In this document: in pieces, positions 3,994-12,021 of the stretch
Layout: each line of letters begins with the position of its first letter
Numbering within the stretch: the stretch's first letter is position 1
Source: Mariprofundaceae bacterium
GTDB lineage: Bacteria > Pseudomonadota > Zetaproteobacteria > Mariprofundales > Mariprofundaceae
DNA length: 34,648 nucleotides
NCBI GenBank assembly: GCA_015663235.1
Contig: DQSL01000020.1
Coordinates: forward strand, 1 to 34,648
Direction of reading: 5' to 3'
The notes under the pieces: generated by a model
Databases searched by the model: none
Told to the model about the DNA's origin: nothing
Seen by the model: the letters and a program-made list of their open reading frames with translations, nothing else
Made by a program: the position numbers and the translations under genes

Positions 3994-6084
3994 TTAGCCC
4001 GCATTCATATGCCCAAGTGCATCCATCAATTCTTGCTGTGCCGACCTTGGTTTAGCATCGGAACGTATGCGCACATAACGACCATCCGAACGCAAGTTCC
4101 AAGTGCCTGTATTGTCCGCCAAATAGGTGCGCAACCCTTCTTTCATCACGCGGTCGAACAATGTTTTATCCAAGATTGGGAAACATGTTTCCACGCGGTG
4201 CAATAAATTGCGGCTCATCCAATCGGCACTGGCGCAAAACAACTCTTCGTCTCCACCATTCAAAAAATAATACACCCGATGATGCTCCAAGAAACGACCC
4301 AAAATCGAGCGCACACGAATATTTTCTGACACGCCTTTGATTCCCGGACGCAAACAACAAATACCGCGCACCATCAAATCAATTTTGACACCTGCCTGCG
4401 AAGCGCGGTACAAAGCTTGAATCATTTCTGGCTCTTCCAAACCGTTCATTTTACCAATGATGCGCCCTTGTCCACCTGCTTGCACATGTCCAATTTCCCG
4501 CTCAATACGCTCCAACATGCCTTTGTGCAGGGTAAAAGGGGCATGAAGCAGTGTTTTCATGCGTTGCACGCGACCTGTGCCTGTAAGTTGTTGAAACATT
4601 TTATGTACATCTTCTGCAAGCTCAGGGTTGCATGAGAGCAGCCCGAAATCAGTGTAATACCTAGATGTAATACTGTGATAGTTACCTGTGCCAAGATGCA
4701 CATAACGGCGTAAACGACGACCTTCGCGGCGTACAATCAACATCATTTTACCGTGTGTTTTATAACCCACCACACCATAAATCACCTGTACACCCGCAGC
4801 ATGAAGTCTATCTGCCAAACCAATATTATCCGCTTCATTGAACCGCGCTCTAAGCTCAATAATTGCCACCACTTCTTTGCCATTGGCCGCAGCTTTCACC
4901 AACGCATTTACAATCGGTGAGTCGGGTACAACGCGGTACATGGTTTGTTTAATCGCCAATACATCAGGGTCGTTGGCTGCCTGATTTAACAAGTCCATCA
5001 CAGGCTCAAAGCTTTGAAATGGATGATGTAACAACACATCCGAGCGTTTTATTCTATCAAACAATGATGATGAATCATCTTCGCTGGTGGTGGATAAACA
5101 TGTGGGCAAACCTGCAACAAAAGGTTTAAATTTCAAATCTGCTCTGTCCACTTCATCAGAAATCGCAGCCAGTCGGTACAAGTTCACCAGCCCATTCACG
5201 TGGTACAAATCCTGCTCTTTTAAGTTGAACTGATGCAATAAAAAGTCGGAAAGTTCTTCTGGACAACGAATGGAAACTTCAAGGCGAACAGCAGCGCCAA
5301 ATCGGCTATCCAAAAGCTCGGCTGCAATCATCTTTTTCAAATCTTCACTTTCTTCTTCACGGCGATAAAGCTCGCTGTTTCTTGTGACGCGAAACTGGTG
5401 ACATTGCGACACTTCCATACCAGGAAACAAATCATCCACATAGGCGTGCATAATCGATGAGAGCAGCACAAACCCGTGCGCACAATCTGCCACATCATCA
5501 GGCAAAGCAATCAAACGCGGCAATGAGCGCGGCGCTTGGACAATGGCTTTTTTTACATCACGCCCAAAGGCATCTTTGCCTTCAAGGGTGACGATAAAAT
5601 TTAAGATTTTATTGACCAACTTGGGAAAAGGATAGGCAGGGTCTAGGGCAATCGGGGTAAGCACTGGCAATAGCTCCGCACGGAAAAAGCGGCGAAGCCA
5701 TTGTTGTTGGGTTTCATTCCATTCATGCCGCGGTAAGATTTTAATATCTTCATCACGCATCGCAGGCAAAATGTCATTTTCTATCAATGCATATTGCTTC
5801 TCTACCAAGGCCTCAACATCGGTGCGAATGGCATTCAATGTTTCGGATGTGGAAAGCCCATCAGGTGAAGTCGCGTTTAAACCCATCGCCACACGTTGCT
5901 TTAACATCGCCACACGCACTTCAAAAAACTCATCCAAGTTGGAGCTACTGATACACAAGAAACGAAGGCGCTCTAAAAGCGGCACCGATTCATCACAAGC
6001 CAACTCAAACACACGTTGGTTAAATGCCAGCATGCTTAAGTTGCGATTCAAATATAATTCGGGTGCTTGTAAATCTTGGCTCAT
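3994..6084 (-). CDS. ppk1: Polyphosphate kinase 1
   Basis: ORF 3994-6138, start at 6084 (MSQDLQAPELYLNRNLSMLAFNQRVFE) with AGGAGAGA upstream. Catalytic motifs YVHLGTGNYHSITSRYYTDFGLLS and GYKTHGKMMLIVRREG. Confidence 0.95.
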   Translation of the reverse strand: MSQDLQAPELYLNRNLSMLAFNQRVFELACDESVPLLERLRFLCISSSNLDEFFEVRVAMLKQRVAMGLNATSPDGLSTSETLNAIRTDVEALVEKQYALIENDILPAMRDEDIKILPRHEWNETQQQWLRRFFRAELLPVLTPIALDPAYPFPKLVNKILNFIVTLEGKDAFGRDVKKAIVQAPRSLPRLIALPDDVADCAHGFVLLSSIMHAYVDDLFPGMEVSQCHQFRVTRNSELYRREEESEDLKKMIAAELLDSRFGAAVRLEVSIRCPEELSDFLLHQFNLKEQDLYHVNGLVNLYRLAAISDEVDRADLKFKPFVAGLPTCLSTTSEDDSSSLFDRIKRSDVLLHHPFQSFEPVMDLLNQAANDPDVLAIKQTMYRVVPDSPIVNALVKAAANGKEVVAIIELRARFNEADNIGLADRLHAAGVQVIYGVVGYKTHGKMMLIVRREGRRLRRYVHLGTGNYHSITSRYYTDFGLLSCNPELAEDVHKMFQQLTGTGRVQRMKTLLHAPFTLHKGMLERIEREIGHVQAGGQGRIIGKMNGLEEPEMIQALYRASQAGVKIDLMVRGICCLRPGIKGVSENIRVRSILGRFLEHHRVYYFLNGGDEELFCASADWMSRNLLHRVETCFPILDKTLFDRVMKEGLRTYLADNTGTWNLRSDGRYVRIRSDAKPRSAQQELMDALGHMNAG

Positions 6085-6303
6085 TGTCTCTCCTAAAAGT
6101 GTATCAACAACAATACTCTGCACCACAATATGACACAATCATGATATATTAATGAAATGATGATTTCTCATCTCTAACATAGAAAATAATGTTTGCAATT
6201 TAGCCTTATTATCTGTATGGTGAGCATGAAAAGCCAGTGCGTGGTTTTACGCAATACAGTTGAAGCTAATCAACCAACCTTTTCACCACAAAATAAAGGC
6301 AAA

Positions 6304-7287: not shown

Positions 7288-7293
7288 CTACCA

Positions 7294-7317
7294 TGCTCTG
7301 CTGAAATATGCAGAGCA
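7294..7317 (+). promoter_or_regulatory. Intergenic hairpin between ppk2 and the H1-like gene
   Basis: TGCTCTGC-tgaaatat-GCAGAGCA: perfect 8-bp stem, 7 nt after the ppk2 stop. No strong T-tract follows, so attenuator or mRNA-processing structure is possible. Confidence 0.45.
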
Positions 7318-7352
7318 ATCTTAAATTAAATACGACTACATTGAGGATAACT

Positions 7353-7643
7353 ATGAGCAAAAGTAAACATGATAAAGAGCTACAAGACGCGTTAGCAAAA
7401 GCAATTAAAAAAGCCGATAAAGCTGCGGCTAAAGCTGCAAAGGCTGCTAAAAAGGCAAAAAAAGCTGCCAAGAAAGCCAAGCGCACTGAAAAGCGGATGA
7501 GTAAAACCGCAAAAAAAGTAGGTAAACAACACGAATTGACCAAGCGTCATTTAAAGAAGTATGATGCAGCCAAGGTGAAAAAAGCCGCCAAGAAAAAAGC
7601 TGTGCAAAAGAAAGTTCGCGCACAACAGGCGGCAAGCACATAA
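7353..7643 (+). CDS. Lysine/alanine-rich histone H1/AlgP-like basic protein (96 aa)
   Basis: ATG at 7353: MSKSKHDKELQDALAKAIKKADKAAAKAAKAAKKAKKAAKKAKRTEKRMSKTAKKVGKQ... About one third Lys by hand count, with KKAAKKAK-type repeats. Confidence 0.75.
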   Translation: MSKSKHDKELQDALAKAIKKADKAAAKAAKAAKKAKKAAKKAKRTEKRMSKTAKKVGKQHELTKRHLKKYDAAKVKKAAKKKAVQKKVRAQQAAST

Positions 7644-7656
7644 CGAGGGTCAGCTT

Positions 7657-9183
7657 TTGAGCGTACATTTGGGCAAACACATTGCAGCAGTAGATATGGG
7701 AACCAATTCATTCCATATGATTATTGCCAAAGCCGAAGCACACGGCGCATTTCATATTGTGGACAGAATGAAACACTGGGTGCGTTTGGGCGATGGTGTA
7801 AATGCACGCGGTAGGCTCAATGAAGAGGCCATTGGACGTATGCTTGAAAGTTTAAAATTCTTCAAACAATTGGCAGAAAGTTATGATGCAGAAATACACT
7901 GCATTGCCACTTCTGCCATGCGTGAAGCACCCAATCAGTATGCCATTGCCAAACGCATTCGCCAAGAACTTGCTTTGGTCGTTGAAATTGTCAGCGGCGA
8001 AGAAGAAGCGCGGCTGGTGTTTCAGGGTGTACGCTCGGAAGGTTATATTCAAGATGAACCTGCCCATATTATTGATATTGGTGGTGGTAGCACAGAAGTC
8101 ATTGTCGGCAACAACCCCGATGGTGTGCTTGCAGCGGAAAGCTTGGATATGGGCGCGCGCCGCTATTCAAGAAAATTCTTTGCCGCAGGTAACTACACAA
8201 CACGTCAAATCAAACAATGCCATGCCGCTGCTGCCAGTAAAATTCAAGCTGTGGCATCGGAATACAAATCCTTTGCTATTCATGCCGTGTATGGCACATC
8301 AGGCACTATTCGCAGTTTGGCAGAAGTCATTTCCAGCTTTTGTGAACATGATGATGCCACTCACCTTGCCATACAAGATTTGAAAAATATTCGCCCCCAA
8401 CTTATCGAAGCCGTGAAAAGCAATGCTTTGCCTGCAAGCATTGAAGCAGAGCGCCAAGCCACTTTGGTGGCAGGCAGCATCATCCTTGAAGAGGTGATGC
8501 GCGCACTCAAAATCAAGTCCTTGCGCGTGTGCCCCAGTGCTTTGCGTGAAGGTATTGTCTTCGACCGCATCGCCAGCTCTGGTCGTTTACCTTCTCGCCC
8601 TATTCGTGCTGCCAGCCAAGCTATGGCAAAACGATTCAACCTTAATCGTAGCCAAATCAAACACGTGACCCAAACGGCTGAAATTATTTTTCAAGCATGC
8701 GAAAAACTATTGGACTTAAATGAGGAGGCTTATCGCTTGCTCATTGCGGCCTGCCAATTGCATGAAATTGGTTTGACCATGAGCCACAAGAAAATTCACC
8801 TACATGGCAGCTATATTATTGGGCATTCCAATCTCACAGGTGTCACCCAACGGCAACAGCAAATGTTAGCAGCTATGGTGCGATTCCACCGCAAATCCAG
8901 CCCCAATGCCAAACATGCGGCATTTAAAAGTATGCGCAGTAAAGATGTTCGCTCAACCATTGCTTTGGCTGCCATTTTGCGGCTGGCATCAGCTTTAAAT
9001 CGCACCAAAAGCGGTGAGCCTGCCTTGCCAAGCATTGTAGAGAAAAAGAATAAATGGCTTTGGTCTTTTGATGCACAATGGTTTGATGAACATGACGTAT
9101 GCATTTGGAACGGCGAACAAGAAAAGAGACCTTTGGTTAAACTTGTTGGCAAACCTATCAAGCTAAGCAAAAACACCGACTAA
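7657..9183 (+). CDS. ppx: Ppx/GppA family exopolyphosphatase/pppGpp phosphatase
   Basis: AAVDMGTNSFHMIIAK, IATSAMREAPN, EIVSGEEEARLVFQGV, IIDIGGGSTEVIVG, YGTSGTIRSLAEV, LRVCPSALREGIVFD: diagnostic Ppx/GppA motifs plus C-terminal HD-like helical region. Confidence 0.92.
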   Translation: MSVHLGKHIAAVDMGTNSFHMIIAKAEAHGAFHIVDRMKHWVRLGDGVNARGRLNEEAIGRMLESLKFFKQLAESYDAEIHCIATSAMREAPNQYAIAKRIRQELALVVEIVSGEEEARLVFQGVRSEGYIQDEPAHIIDIGGGSTEVIVGNNPDGVLAAESLDMGARRYSRKFFAAGNYTTRQIKQCHAAAASKIQAVASEYKSFAIHAVYGTSGTIRSLAEVISSFCEHDDATHLAIQDLKNIRPQLIEAVKSNALPASIEAERQATLVAGSIILEEVMRALKIKSLRVCPSALREGIVFDRIASSGRLPSRPIRAASQAMAKRFNLNRSQIKHVTQTAEIIFQACEKLLDLNEEAYRLLIAACQLHEIGLTMSHKKIHLHGSYIIGHSNLTGVTQRQQQMLAAMVRFHRKSSPNAKHAAFKSMRSKDVRSTIALAAILRLASALNRTKSGEPALPSIVEKKNKWLWSFDAQWFDEHDVCIWNGEQEKRPLVKLVGKPIKLSKNTD

Positions 9184-9187
9184 AGCT

Positions 9188-9676
9188 GTGAAAAGCAATA
9201 TCCACTTCATCAAAAAGCTTTCGTTTTTGTCTGACAAACGAAAATTCTCACTTTTTCTACCCTTTTTCTTGATGCGTGCATCACTGGAAGAATATAATGA
9301 GGATTGGAGCAAAGTTCGCATTCGGTTACCACTAAACTGGGTATCCAAAAATGCAGCGGGTAATATGTTTGGTGGTTTTCAAGCCAGCCTTGCCGACCCG
9401 ATTCCTGCCATGGCTTGTATCAAAAAGTTTCCAAAGTATAGGGTTGCCACCAAAAATTTGGCGATTGATTTTATCCGTGTTGGCAACTCTGATTTAATGT
9501 TGCACTTCGATTTTTCTGCGGAACAAGAGCAACAAATTTGTGCCGAATTAGCCGAACATGGTCGTGCCACACCAAGTTTTGATATGGTTTTCATCCGTGC
9601 CGATGGGAAGGTGTGTTCAAGAATCAAGAATACAGTCGCCATTCGTCCTTTAGGTTATGTGAGTTCCTTCGAATAA
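9188..9676 (+). CDS. DUF4442-type hotdog-fold putative thioesterase
   Basis: LNWVSKNAAGNMFGGFQASLADPIPAMACIKKFPKYRVATKNLAIDFIRVGNSDLMLHFDF pattern. GTG start at 9188 or ATG at 9272; the palindrome at 9219-9243 makes the later start plausible. Confidence 0.65.
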   Translation: MKSNIHFIKKLSFLSDKRKFSLFLPFFLMRASLEEYNEDWSKVRIRLPLNWVSKNAAGNMFGGFQASLADPIPAMACIKKFPKYRVATKNLAIDFIRVGNSDLMLHFDFSAEQEQQICAELAEHGRATPSFDMVFIRADGKVCSRIKNTVAIRPLGYVSSFE

Positions 9677-9813: not shown

Positions 9814-12021
9814 ATGAAAAACCATATGAAAATAATATTATATATTGCACTCGCCATGCTGGCAGGGTGTAACAATGATAACACACCCACAAGTACGCTC
9901 TCATCAGGGGGAGTGACACCCTCGACCTCGACCTCCACCCCCACGATAACAGCGATTACATTCTCAAACACGCTCGCACCCACTGACCAATATGCACAAG
10001 GCGACCCTTATGCAACATACAATATGTCTGTGCCATACACGACATCTGTTGCAACCGTTACCCTTAGTGATGGTACAAGTACAAACTATCCATTGGAACA
10101 TAAGATGTTGTTTCGCTCTGATGATGTGATTCCAACGGGTGCACATGCTGGTGAATATTATGGTGGTATTGTGGATACATACGGCACCCCTGTTCTCGAC
10201 CCTGTTGCTGCAAACAATCCGCATTATACAACCGTTACCAACAAAGCACTTACTGCTGGCTTAACCCCTGCAAATAAAGACCAGTTCGTTGCAGATACAC
10301 CTGATGGTTCGGCTTTGATTCAAGTTGCTGGCGCACCCAGCTCTGCAACGACCGCAGACTTATCTTATTTGACGCATTTTGAATATGTCACTTGGGATGG
10401 TAATCAAGCTAGCCAATATGGTAAAAACCCAATGTTTGTTGGTAATAGTCTATTGTCACAGGATTTAACAACAGGGCTGCTTACCATGAAAAGCTTTGAT
10501 AAAGTTACCTTTAATGCTGAAAAAGGTTTATGGATTCCATGTGCTGCATCCAAGTCGCCTTGGAACACATTTATTGGCTCAGAAGAATATGAAGCTGACC
10601 AATACAACTTTGATATGTATAGCATGAACCCCGTTGCCAATCCTCTGGATTTTTCTAACGGCAACTTATATCAAGCCTTTAGAAGTAAATTCGGTGCAAC
10701 CACTGCCCGCCCTTACGACTATGGTTATGTCACTGAAACAACTGTTGACCAAGCTGGTGTGGCAACAGCCGTCAAACATTATGCCACAGGTCGTTTGGCG
10801 CGTGAGTTGATTAAAGTGATGCCTGATGGCAAAACTTATTATTCTGGGGATGATAGCAAAAGTACAATTTTGTTCATGGGTATTGCAGATGTCGCCAATG
10901 ATTTGTCTGCAACCACCTTGTACGCATCAAAGTTCACCCAAACAAGCCCTGTATCTCCTGCCAACACAGCACCTGGCGAAGTTGGTGCTGTTGTAGGTGC
11001 TGAGCTTGGCGCGGGCACATTATCTTGGATTCGATTGGGTCATGCCACTGATGCTCAAGTCAAAGCATGGGTTACTGCAGGCACCAAATCAACTGACATT
11101 TTCGATATTGTCATCGAGCCGGTGGCTGGTGTACTACCAACGGCTGTAACAGGCATTGTTGGCACAGGCATTGGCGGCGTGGTTACTGCGGCAGATATGA
11201 CTGCTGCAGGTTATAAGCGTGTATTCAACTACTACCATCGCCACACCAAAGGCAAAGCTGAATGGTTGCGTTTGCGCCCTAATATGGCTCAAGCTGCTGC
11301 ATTCTTGGAAACTCGCCGTTATGCGGTTTATCTAGGCGCAACAAGTGAGTGGACAAAAATGGAAGGTGTTGCCATGAATGCTGCTGATAAAAAAGCATAC
11401 ATCGCCATCTCTTACCAATACGACAGCATGACTGATGGTGTTGGCGATATTCAAATGGGTTTACTCACATCGGGTAATACCTATGAGTTATCACTAGCCG
11501 CAAATGTAGCCGACTCAACGGGTGCTGCAATCAGCAGTGCATGGGTGGCAACTTCTTTGGCGGCTATCCCAGAGCTTAAAGGTTTGGACAATGCTTATGC
11601 CGCCGCACCTGCTGCACACGAGCGGACTGCTGATGCACAGGGTAACTTTTGTGCTACAAGCAATGTCGGCAATCCTGACAACCTCAAGTTCTCAGAGTCC
11701 TATCGCACACTGTTTGTCGGTGAAGATAGCAACTGTCATGTGAACAACTTCGTGTGGGCATTTAATGTTGATACACGTTCGTTATCACGCATCCTATCTG
11801 TGCCAATGGGTGCAGAGGCTACTGGTTTGATGACTGTGGATAATATCAATGGTTATGCATACATCGGAGCCAACTACCAGCATCCTGGTGATAATGGTGT
11901 TGGTGCACCTCCTGCGGCTTTGGTAACAGCCGTTGAAGCTGCCAATCCAAACTTTGCAGCCGAACGTAACCGCTCTGGTGGCATTGGTTATATCCACTTC
12001 AAAGGTATGCCAAGAATGTAG
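9814..12021 (+). CDS. Secreted lipoprotein, PhoX/DUF839-like alkaline phosphatase family
   Basis: Lipoprotein signal MKNHMKIILYIALAMLAGC. C-terminal FSESYRTLFVGEDSNCHVNNFVWAFNVDTRSLSRILSVPMGAEATGLMTVDNINGYAYIGANYQHPGDN is typical of DUF839/PhoX. Pho-box-like array upstream. Confidence 0.75.
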   Translation: MKNHMKIILYIALAMLAGCNNDNTPTSTLSSGGVTPSTSTSTPTITAITFSNTLAPTDQYAQGDPYATYNMSVPYTTSVATVTLSDGTSTNYPLEHKMLFRSDDVIPTGAHAGEYYGGIVDTYGTPVLDPVAANNPHYTTVTNKALTAGLTPANKDQFVADTPDGSALIQVAGAPSSATTADLSYLTHFEYVTWDGNQASQYGKNPMFVGNSLLSQDLTTGLLTMKSFDKVTFNAEKGLWIPCAASKSPWNTFIGSEEYEADQYNFDMYSMNPVANPLDFSNGNLYQAFRSKFGATTARPYDYGYVTETTVDQAGVATAVKHYATGRLARELIKVMPDGKTYYSGDDSKSTILFMGIADVANDLSATTLYASKFTQTSPVSPANTAPGEVGAVVGAELGAGTLSWIRLGHATDAQVKAWVTAGTKSTDIFDIVIEPVAGVLPTAVTGIVGTGIGGVVTAADMTAAGYKRVFNYYHRHTKGKAEWLRLRPNMAQAAAFLETRRYAVYLGATSEWTKMEGVAMNAADKKAYIAISYQYDSMTDGVGDIQMGLLTSGNTYELSLAANVADSTGAAISSAWVATSLAAIPELKGLDNAYAAAPAAHERTADAQGNFCATSNVGNPDNLKFSESYRTLFVGEDSNCHVNNFVWAFNVDTRSLSRILSVPMGAEATGLMTVDNINGYAYIGANYQHPGDNGVGAPPAALVTAVEAANPNFAAERNRSGGIGYIHFKGMPRM

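What the first reader, a model, noticed from the sequence alone, without database searches (positions are those of the whole stretch)
7353..7643. Histone H1/AlgP-like basic protein embedded between ppk2 and ppx
A 96-aa protein, about one third lysine by my count with KKAAKKAK repeats, sits in the same direction between polyphosphate kinase 2 and exopolyphosphatase. In Pseudomonas aeruginosa the H1-like protein AlgP has been reported to associate with and organise polyphosphate granules on the nucleoid. Direct operonic linkage to polyP synthesis and degradation genes suggests a dedicated polyP-DNA organiser or a lysine-rich polyP-binding protein. The protein and its position are read from sequence; the function is inference.
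Basis: partly seen in the sequence, partly recalled or inferred. Interest (0 to 1): 0.72.

Follow-up and report, generated by a model that had tools for sequence, protein, structure and literature searches.

The report
Lysine-rich helix protein beside ppk2
In some Ghiorsea bacteria (marine Zetaproteobacteria), a tiny, very positively charged helical protein is encoded between an enzyme that makes or uses polyphosphate and one that breaks it down, and it has been inherited together with the former, so it is probably a dedicated polyphosphate-binding helper; this is untested.

Summary
Window 7353-7643 encodes a 96-aa protein (32 K, 24 A, no proline, computed charge about +29) between ppk2 and ppx. 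It is a real gene: it is intact in 7 Ghiorsea genomes with dN/dS about 0.05-0.09, and its lysine/alanine core is nearly invariant although synonymous sites there are near saturation. It has its own ribosome-binding site, and every intact operon carries an intercistronic hairpin before it. It was found only in Ghiorsea. About 90 other PPK2 loci have no such neighbour. It goes with one PPK2 lineage, whose members carry a strongly basic N-terminal tail, rather than with Ppx. G007 and G013 have carrier-like Ppx but a diverged PPK2 and no small gene. Three further loci have lost ppk2 and part of the small gene together.

The AlgP label is only partly right: no KPAA repeats, no proline, no N-terminal domain, no repeat-length variation, and no H1-like Pfam or NCBIfam match. 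It is predicted to be one continuous helix with lysine concentrated on one side. Best reading: a PPK2-linked cationic helix that binds polyphosphate and shapes granules or condensates. Tethering of granules to DNA is possible but has no specific support. Function is inferred, not shown.

The parts
7353..7643 (+). Small lysine/alanine-rich gene (96 aa, 33% K, 25% A, no proline); predicted single cationic amphipathic helix
6367..7287 (+). ppk2 (306 aa, TIGR03707 PPK2_P_aer) with a basic N-terminal tail
7657..9183 (+). ppx, exopolyphosphatase (508 aa, Ppx/GppA), TTG start
3994..6138 (-). ppk1, divergently transcribed (714 aa)
7294..7317 (+). Intercistronic RNA hairpin between ppk2 and the small gene (8-bp stem, 8-nt loop, no U-run). 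Hairpins of different sequence sit at the same place in all carriers; absent in genomes without the small gene
7343..7347 (+). Shine-Dalgarno-like GAGGA, 5 nt before ATG 7353
7645..7649 (+). Shine-Dalgarno-like GAGGG before the ppx TTG start
9188..9676 (+). DUF4442 / 4HBT-type thioesterase-like gene, 4 bp after ppx; probable end of the operon

Best explanation
A dedicated accessory protein of PPK2-type polyphosphate metabolism in part of the genus Ghiorsea. It is a rigid, roughly 14-nm cationic helix with lysine concentrated on one face. It binds the polyanion polyphosphate as a counter-polycation at the granule or condensate made or used by the adjacent PPK2. There it would compact or scaffold the polymer, or limit its access to PPK2 and Ppx. 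Shown here: the gene is real, under strong purifying selection, in the ppk2-ppx operon, and inherited with one PPK2 lineage. Predicted: a single helix. Inferred: polyP binding and a granule role. Bridging to DNA is a weaker add-on.
For: 1) Synteny ppk2-small-ppx in 7 Ghiorsea genomes, with dN/dS about 0.05-0.09 and a nearly invariant K/A core. 2) It goes with PPK2 and not with Ppx: on the PPK2 tree presence needs 1 change (3 of 500 shuffles as low); on the Ppx tree, with degraded copies as a separate label, 5 changes (434 of 500 as low). G007 and G013 have carrier-like Ppx (pN 0.09-0.10 to the window) but PPK2 with pN 0.15 against 0.034-0.054 in carriers, at similar pS, and no small gene. 3) Carrier PPK2s have a strongly basic first 50 residues (net +8 to +13); non-carriers have -2 to +5. 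The AlgP paper cites work in Ralstonia that only polyP kinases with basic pI co-localised with granules (PMC9239181). 4) Lysine-rich stretches of E. coli YihI and Rnr bind polyP and need the lysines (PMC12345225). 5) AlphaFold2: one helix, residues 3-95, mean pLDDT 90.6; charge periodicity peaks at 101-104 degrees per residue, and the local charge moment exceeds 500 of 500 shuffles. 6) In three loci ppk2 and the 5' part of the small gene are lost together, and no intact small gene is seen without ppk2.
Against: No direct evidence of polyP binding. Cationic helices also bind DNA, RNA and ribosomes. Joint loss of adjacent genes may just be one deletion. The PPK2/Ppx discordance rests mainly on one ancestral event (the G007+G013 lineage). 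ppk2-ppx operons work without it in G007, G013 and G017. It is unknown outside Ghiorsea.
Confidence: 0.5

Rival explanations
1. AlgP-like organiser: one molecule bridges polyP granules and nucleoid DNA and spaces the granules.
For: Works-like analogy: AlgP is a basic protein needed for even granule spacing (PMC9239181); K/A-rich tails with KAAK motifs, as in HupB, bind DNA (PMC5676037).
Against: No proline or KPAA repeats, no second domain, no length variation. A single helix has no evident separate granule-binding and DNA-binding parts.
Confidence: 0.2
2. General nucleoid-associated, RNA-binding or ribosome-binding basic protein whose place in the polyP operon reflects shared stationary-phase or starvation expression.
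For: Composition fits any polyanion; K/A-rich tails bind DNA.
Against: Confined to ppk2-ppx operons, no paralogue elsewhere in the window's genome at E 0.001, and follows the PPK2 allele.
Confidence: 0.22
3. A direct protein partner or regulator of PPK2 (or of Ppx) acting through protein-protein contact, polyP binding being secondary.
For: The PPK2 sequence shifts where the small gene is absent (pN 0.15 against 0.034-0.054); exact residues outside the K/A core are invariant (K58-Q59-H60, T63-K64-R65-H66-L67-K68-K69-Y70-D71).
Against: No acidic docking surface was looked for or modelled; carrier PPK2 is itself basic at its N-terminus, which speaks against simple electrostatic docking there.
Confidence: 0.15
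4. Spurious low-complexity ORF, not a protein-coding gene.
For: Low-complexity sequence, no database family.
Against: dN/dS about 0.05-0.09, constant length of 95-96 aa and conserved synteny in 7 genomes.
Confidence: 0.01

Closest known systems
AlgP (AlgR3) of Pseudomonas aeruginosa
   Same: Very basic lysine/alanine-rich protein; link to polyP and PPK2 (AlgP puncta overlap Ppk2A; PMC9239181)
   Different: AlgP is 352 aa with a helical N-terminal domain and a disordered KPAA tail; here 96 aa, proline-free, predicted single helix, encoded inside the polyP operon
Histone H1-like bacterial proteins and tails (HupB C-terminal domain; chlamydial HctA/HctB)
   Same: KAAK-type lysine/alanine-rich composition
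   Different: No proline/PAKK motifs, no HU domain, no Pfam H1-like match; in a polyP operon; not of variable length
Lysine-rich polyP-binding regions (PASK and PASK-like; YihI N-terminus, Rnr basic domain)
   Same: Dense lysines expected to bind polyP
   Different: PASK needs D/E/S/K-rich windows; here the spacer is alanine and acidic residues are few; a whole protein rather than a tail
CHAD-domain polyP-binding proteins (phosins)
   Same: Small accessory proteins in polyP biology
   Different: CHAD is a folded domain with conserved histidines; no CHAD match in this genome

Membership tests
AlgP | C-terminal KPAA tandem repeats | tested here: not met
   0 prolines in 96 aa
AlgP | Separate ~124-aa helical N-terminal domain | tested here: not met
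   Whole protein is 96 aa, one helix 3-95
AlgP | Localises to polyP granules and is needed for their spacing | not testable with these tools
   Needs microscopy
Bacterial histone H1-like proteins | Lysine/alanine-rich composition with KAAK motifs | tested here: met
   33% K, 25% A, KAAKKAK block
Bacterial histone H1-like proteins | Match to a curated H1-like profile | tested here: not met
   No Pfam family at E<=1; NCBIfam only a chance match at E 0.32
Bacterial histone H1-like proteins | DNA binding | not testable with these tools
   Needs EMSA
CHAD phosins | CHAD domain | tested here: not met
   No Pfam match of the protein; none in the genome
PASK polyP targets | At least 75% D/E/S/K with at least one K in a 20-aa window | not tested
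   The K/A block has alanine in place of D/E/S, so it is unlikely to qualify; no window scan was run. Definition from PMC12345225

The most novel reading that the evidence does not exclude
A new class of polyphosphate-dedicated protein: an operon-encoded, proline-free cationic single helix inherited with a basic-tailed PPK2, acting as the counter-polycation scaffold of polyP granules, with its own expression level set by an intercistronic hairpin.
Probability: 0.35. Interest if true: 0.65.

Novelty: new variant of a known kind. Interest (0 to 1): 0.45.

Why it matters
How bacteria build and position polyP granules is poorly understood, and the best-studied candidate organiser, AlgP, came from granule proteomics. 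A tiny protein fixed inside the polyP operon and linked to one PPK2 lineage is a simple test case of whether a cationic helix alone can organise polyP. Natural pairs of carrier and non-carrier operons offer a built-in control.

Tried and rejected
Spurious ORF: rejected by dN/dS and synteny. A widespread ppk2-neighbour family: rejected; 92 loci were scanned (89 outside Ghiorsea-type ppk2-ppx operons plus the three such operons without the gene), and the only lysine-rich ORFs that appeared were short or out-of-frame ones judged by eye to be spurious. Remote homology: nothing in Pfam, NCBIfam, PHROGs (best E 0.054) or the PDB profile search. Pho-box control: matches at chance level. Canonical intrinsic terminator between ppk2 and the small gene: not found, no U-run. 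Rfam: no match. Recent transfer of ppk2+small as the reason for the high PPK2 identity: rejected, synonymous sites are as diverged as in neighbouring genes. A linkage with ppk1: not consistent, since the G003 carrier has no ppk1 at this locus or elsewhere in its incomplete genome. A fold search was not run because a single helix matches everything.

Full report
OBSERVATION. The window is contig C85 of a 1.8-Mb draft genome. The relatives that carry the gene are named Ghiorsea sp. or uncultured Zetaproteobacteria. It has 32 lysines and 24 alanines in 96 residues, no proline, and a computed charge of +29. The gene starts 65 bp after ppk2 and ends 13 bp before ppx, on the same strand; ppk1 is divergent upstream.

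IT IS A GENE. Searching relatives with PPK2 and then with the small protein found seven intact copies, all in the order ppk2-small-ppx and all in Ghiorsea: the window (G000), G002, G003, G004, G005, G010 and G015. They align without internal gaps at 78-88% identity to the window. Nei-Gojobori counts give dN/dS of about 0.05-0.09 wherever dS can be calculated. In residues 20-43 there are 11-16 synonymous changes against 0-2 non-synonymous ones, so the exact order of K and A, not just the composition, is kept. That differs from the AlgP tail, whose repeat number varies between isolates (PMC9239181).

DISTRIBUTION. In 78 genomes of the order, only Ghiorsea genomes match. A scan of 84,980 species genomes found seven loci, all from Ghiorsea or unnamed Zetaproteobacteria and apparently the same genomes as; that scan relies on two short peptide patterns and so reaches only close relatives. 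Among 92 PPK2 loci from Zetaproteobacteria and other Pseudomonadota (these exclude the intact carriers), none has a credible lysine/alanine-rich neighbour, and only G007, G013 and G017 place ppk2 next to ppx. The arrangement is therefore lineage-specific.

IT GOES WITH PPK2. Three ppk2-ppx operons lack the gene: G007, G013 and, in another genus, G017. On the Ppx tree G007 and G013 sit inside the carriers, next to G004 and G005, but on the PPK2 tree they fall outside. Against the window, PPK2 of G007 and G013 has pN 0.15 while carriers have 0.034-0.054, at similar synonymous divergence; their Ppx (0.09-0.10) and other genes are like those of carriers. The simplest scenario is that ppk2 was replaced, or changed sharply, and the small gene left with the old allele while ppx stayed. 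Label counts agree: one change on the PPK2 tree (3 of 500 shuffles as low), five on the Ppx tree with degraded copies labelled separately (434 of 500 as low). If degraded copies are counted as carriers the Ppx tree needs only two changes, so this argument rests mostly on the G007/G013 event. Carrier PPK2s also have a very basic first 50 residues (net +8 to +13), non-carriers -2 to +5 (the G004 value includes a probably over-extended start).

DECAY. Three loci show remnants. In G006 ppk2 and the first third of the small gene are gone, with a TnpB-like gene (name from the sequence, not tested) directly upstream of the remnant. In G011 a deletion joins the beginning of ppk2 to the last part of the small gene. 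In G002:C40 ppk2 stops after about 81 residues and the small gene is frame-shifted within its lysine run; G002 also has an intact copy on another contig and is 9% contaminated, so two strains are likely. No intact small gene was seen without ppk2. Each of these could be one deletion across neighbours, so they are weak evidence of functional coupling.

INTERCISTRONIC HAIRPIN. Between the ppk2 stop and the small gene every intact operon has a strong hairpin: z-scores -4.0 to -6.3 in the six intergenic sequences scored (G002 and G015 are identical), and G004 also folds one. The stem sequences differ completely between subgroups. The three operons without the gene have none (z 0.97, -1.56, -0.11). 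In the window it is at 7294-7317. There is no U-run, so it is not a textbook terminator; a processing or stability element that sets the small gene's level relative to ppk2 is the likeliest role (inference).

STRUCTURE. AlphaFold2 with the seven-sequence alignment predicts one helix, residues 3-95, mean pLDDT 90.6, pTM 0.41. The periodicity of K and R peaks at 101-104 degrees per residue, and the local charge moment exceeds all 500 shuffles in windows of 18-54 residues, so lysine is concentrated on one side. Predicted confidence of lone helices can be overstated; free in solution it may be partly disordered.

FUNCTION. The best-supported mechanism is a polyP counter-polycation serving PPK2. 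Supporting knowledge: lysine-rich stretches of YihI and Rnr bind polyP through lysines (PMC12345225); AlgP, with net charge +55, localises to granules and is needed for their spacing (PMC9239181); polyP granules were reported in the zetaproteobacterium M. ferrooxydans (PMC8042907). No CHAD protein was found in the draft genome, which leaves room for another polyP-binding accessory. What is shown is genetic linkage and constraint; polyP binding and a granule role are inferred; a DNA tether is only an analogy. The confidences given to the rivals overlap, since a polyP-binding helix could also touch DNA or PPK2.

COMPARISON AND VERDICT. It may work like AlgP but is not a member of that family: KPAA repeats and the N-terminal domain were tested and not met. 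It matches no curated H1-like profile. It is best filed as a new variant of a known kind, lysine-rich polyanion-binding proteins linked to polyP, with the unusual points that it is a whole protein, proline-free, fixed in sequence, operon-encoded and tied to a basic-tailed PPK2. The narrow distribution and the lack of direct evidence hold the interest score at 0.45.

Noticed in passing
window 7288-7352: Hairpin of unrelated sequence but constant position between ppk2 and the small gene in every carrier, absent where the small gene is absent; possible differential-expression element.
   Followed up: partly
window 3994-6138 (ppk1): Two very different ppk1 types occur in Ghiorsea: 92-95% identical to the window (G004, G005, G006, G009, G011) or only 63-65% (G002, G008, G012, G015); several genomes, including G007 (100% complete), have no match.
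   Followed up: no
L049:6044-7630 (G006): A TnpB-like ORF sits directly upstream of a truncated small gene, with ppk2 missing and ppk1 on another contig: probable mobile-element rearrangement.
   Followed up: partly
L050:1143-1370 (G011): Deletion joining the lysine-rich start of ppk2 to the lysine-rich small gene, perhaps by recombination between the two A-rich stretches.
   Followed up: partly
window 9814-12021: PhoX-like protein (PF05787, E 4e-14) with a signal-peptide-like N-terminus, downstream of ppx: the polyP cluster may extend to phosphate scavenging. In G002 a PhoX-like gene lies beside ppk1 and the thioesterase.
   Followed up: no
window 9188-9676: DUF4442/thioesterase-like gene 4 bp after ppx; in G002 and G015 it lies next to ppk1 instead, so the cluster has been shuffled.
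   Followed up: no
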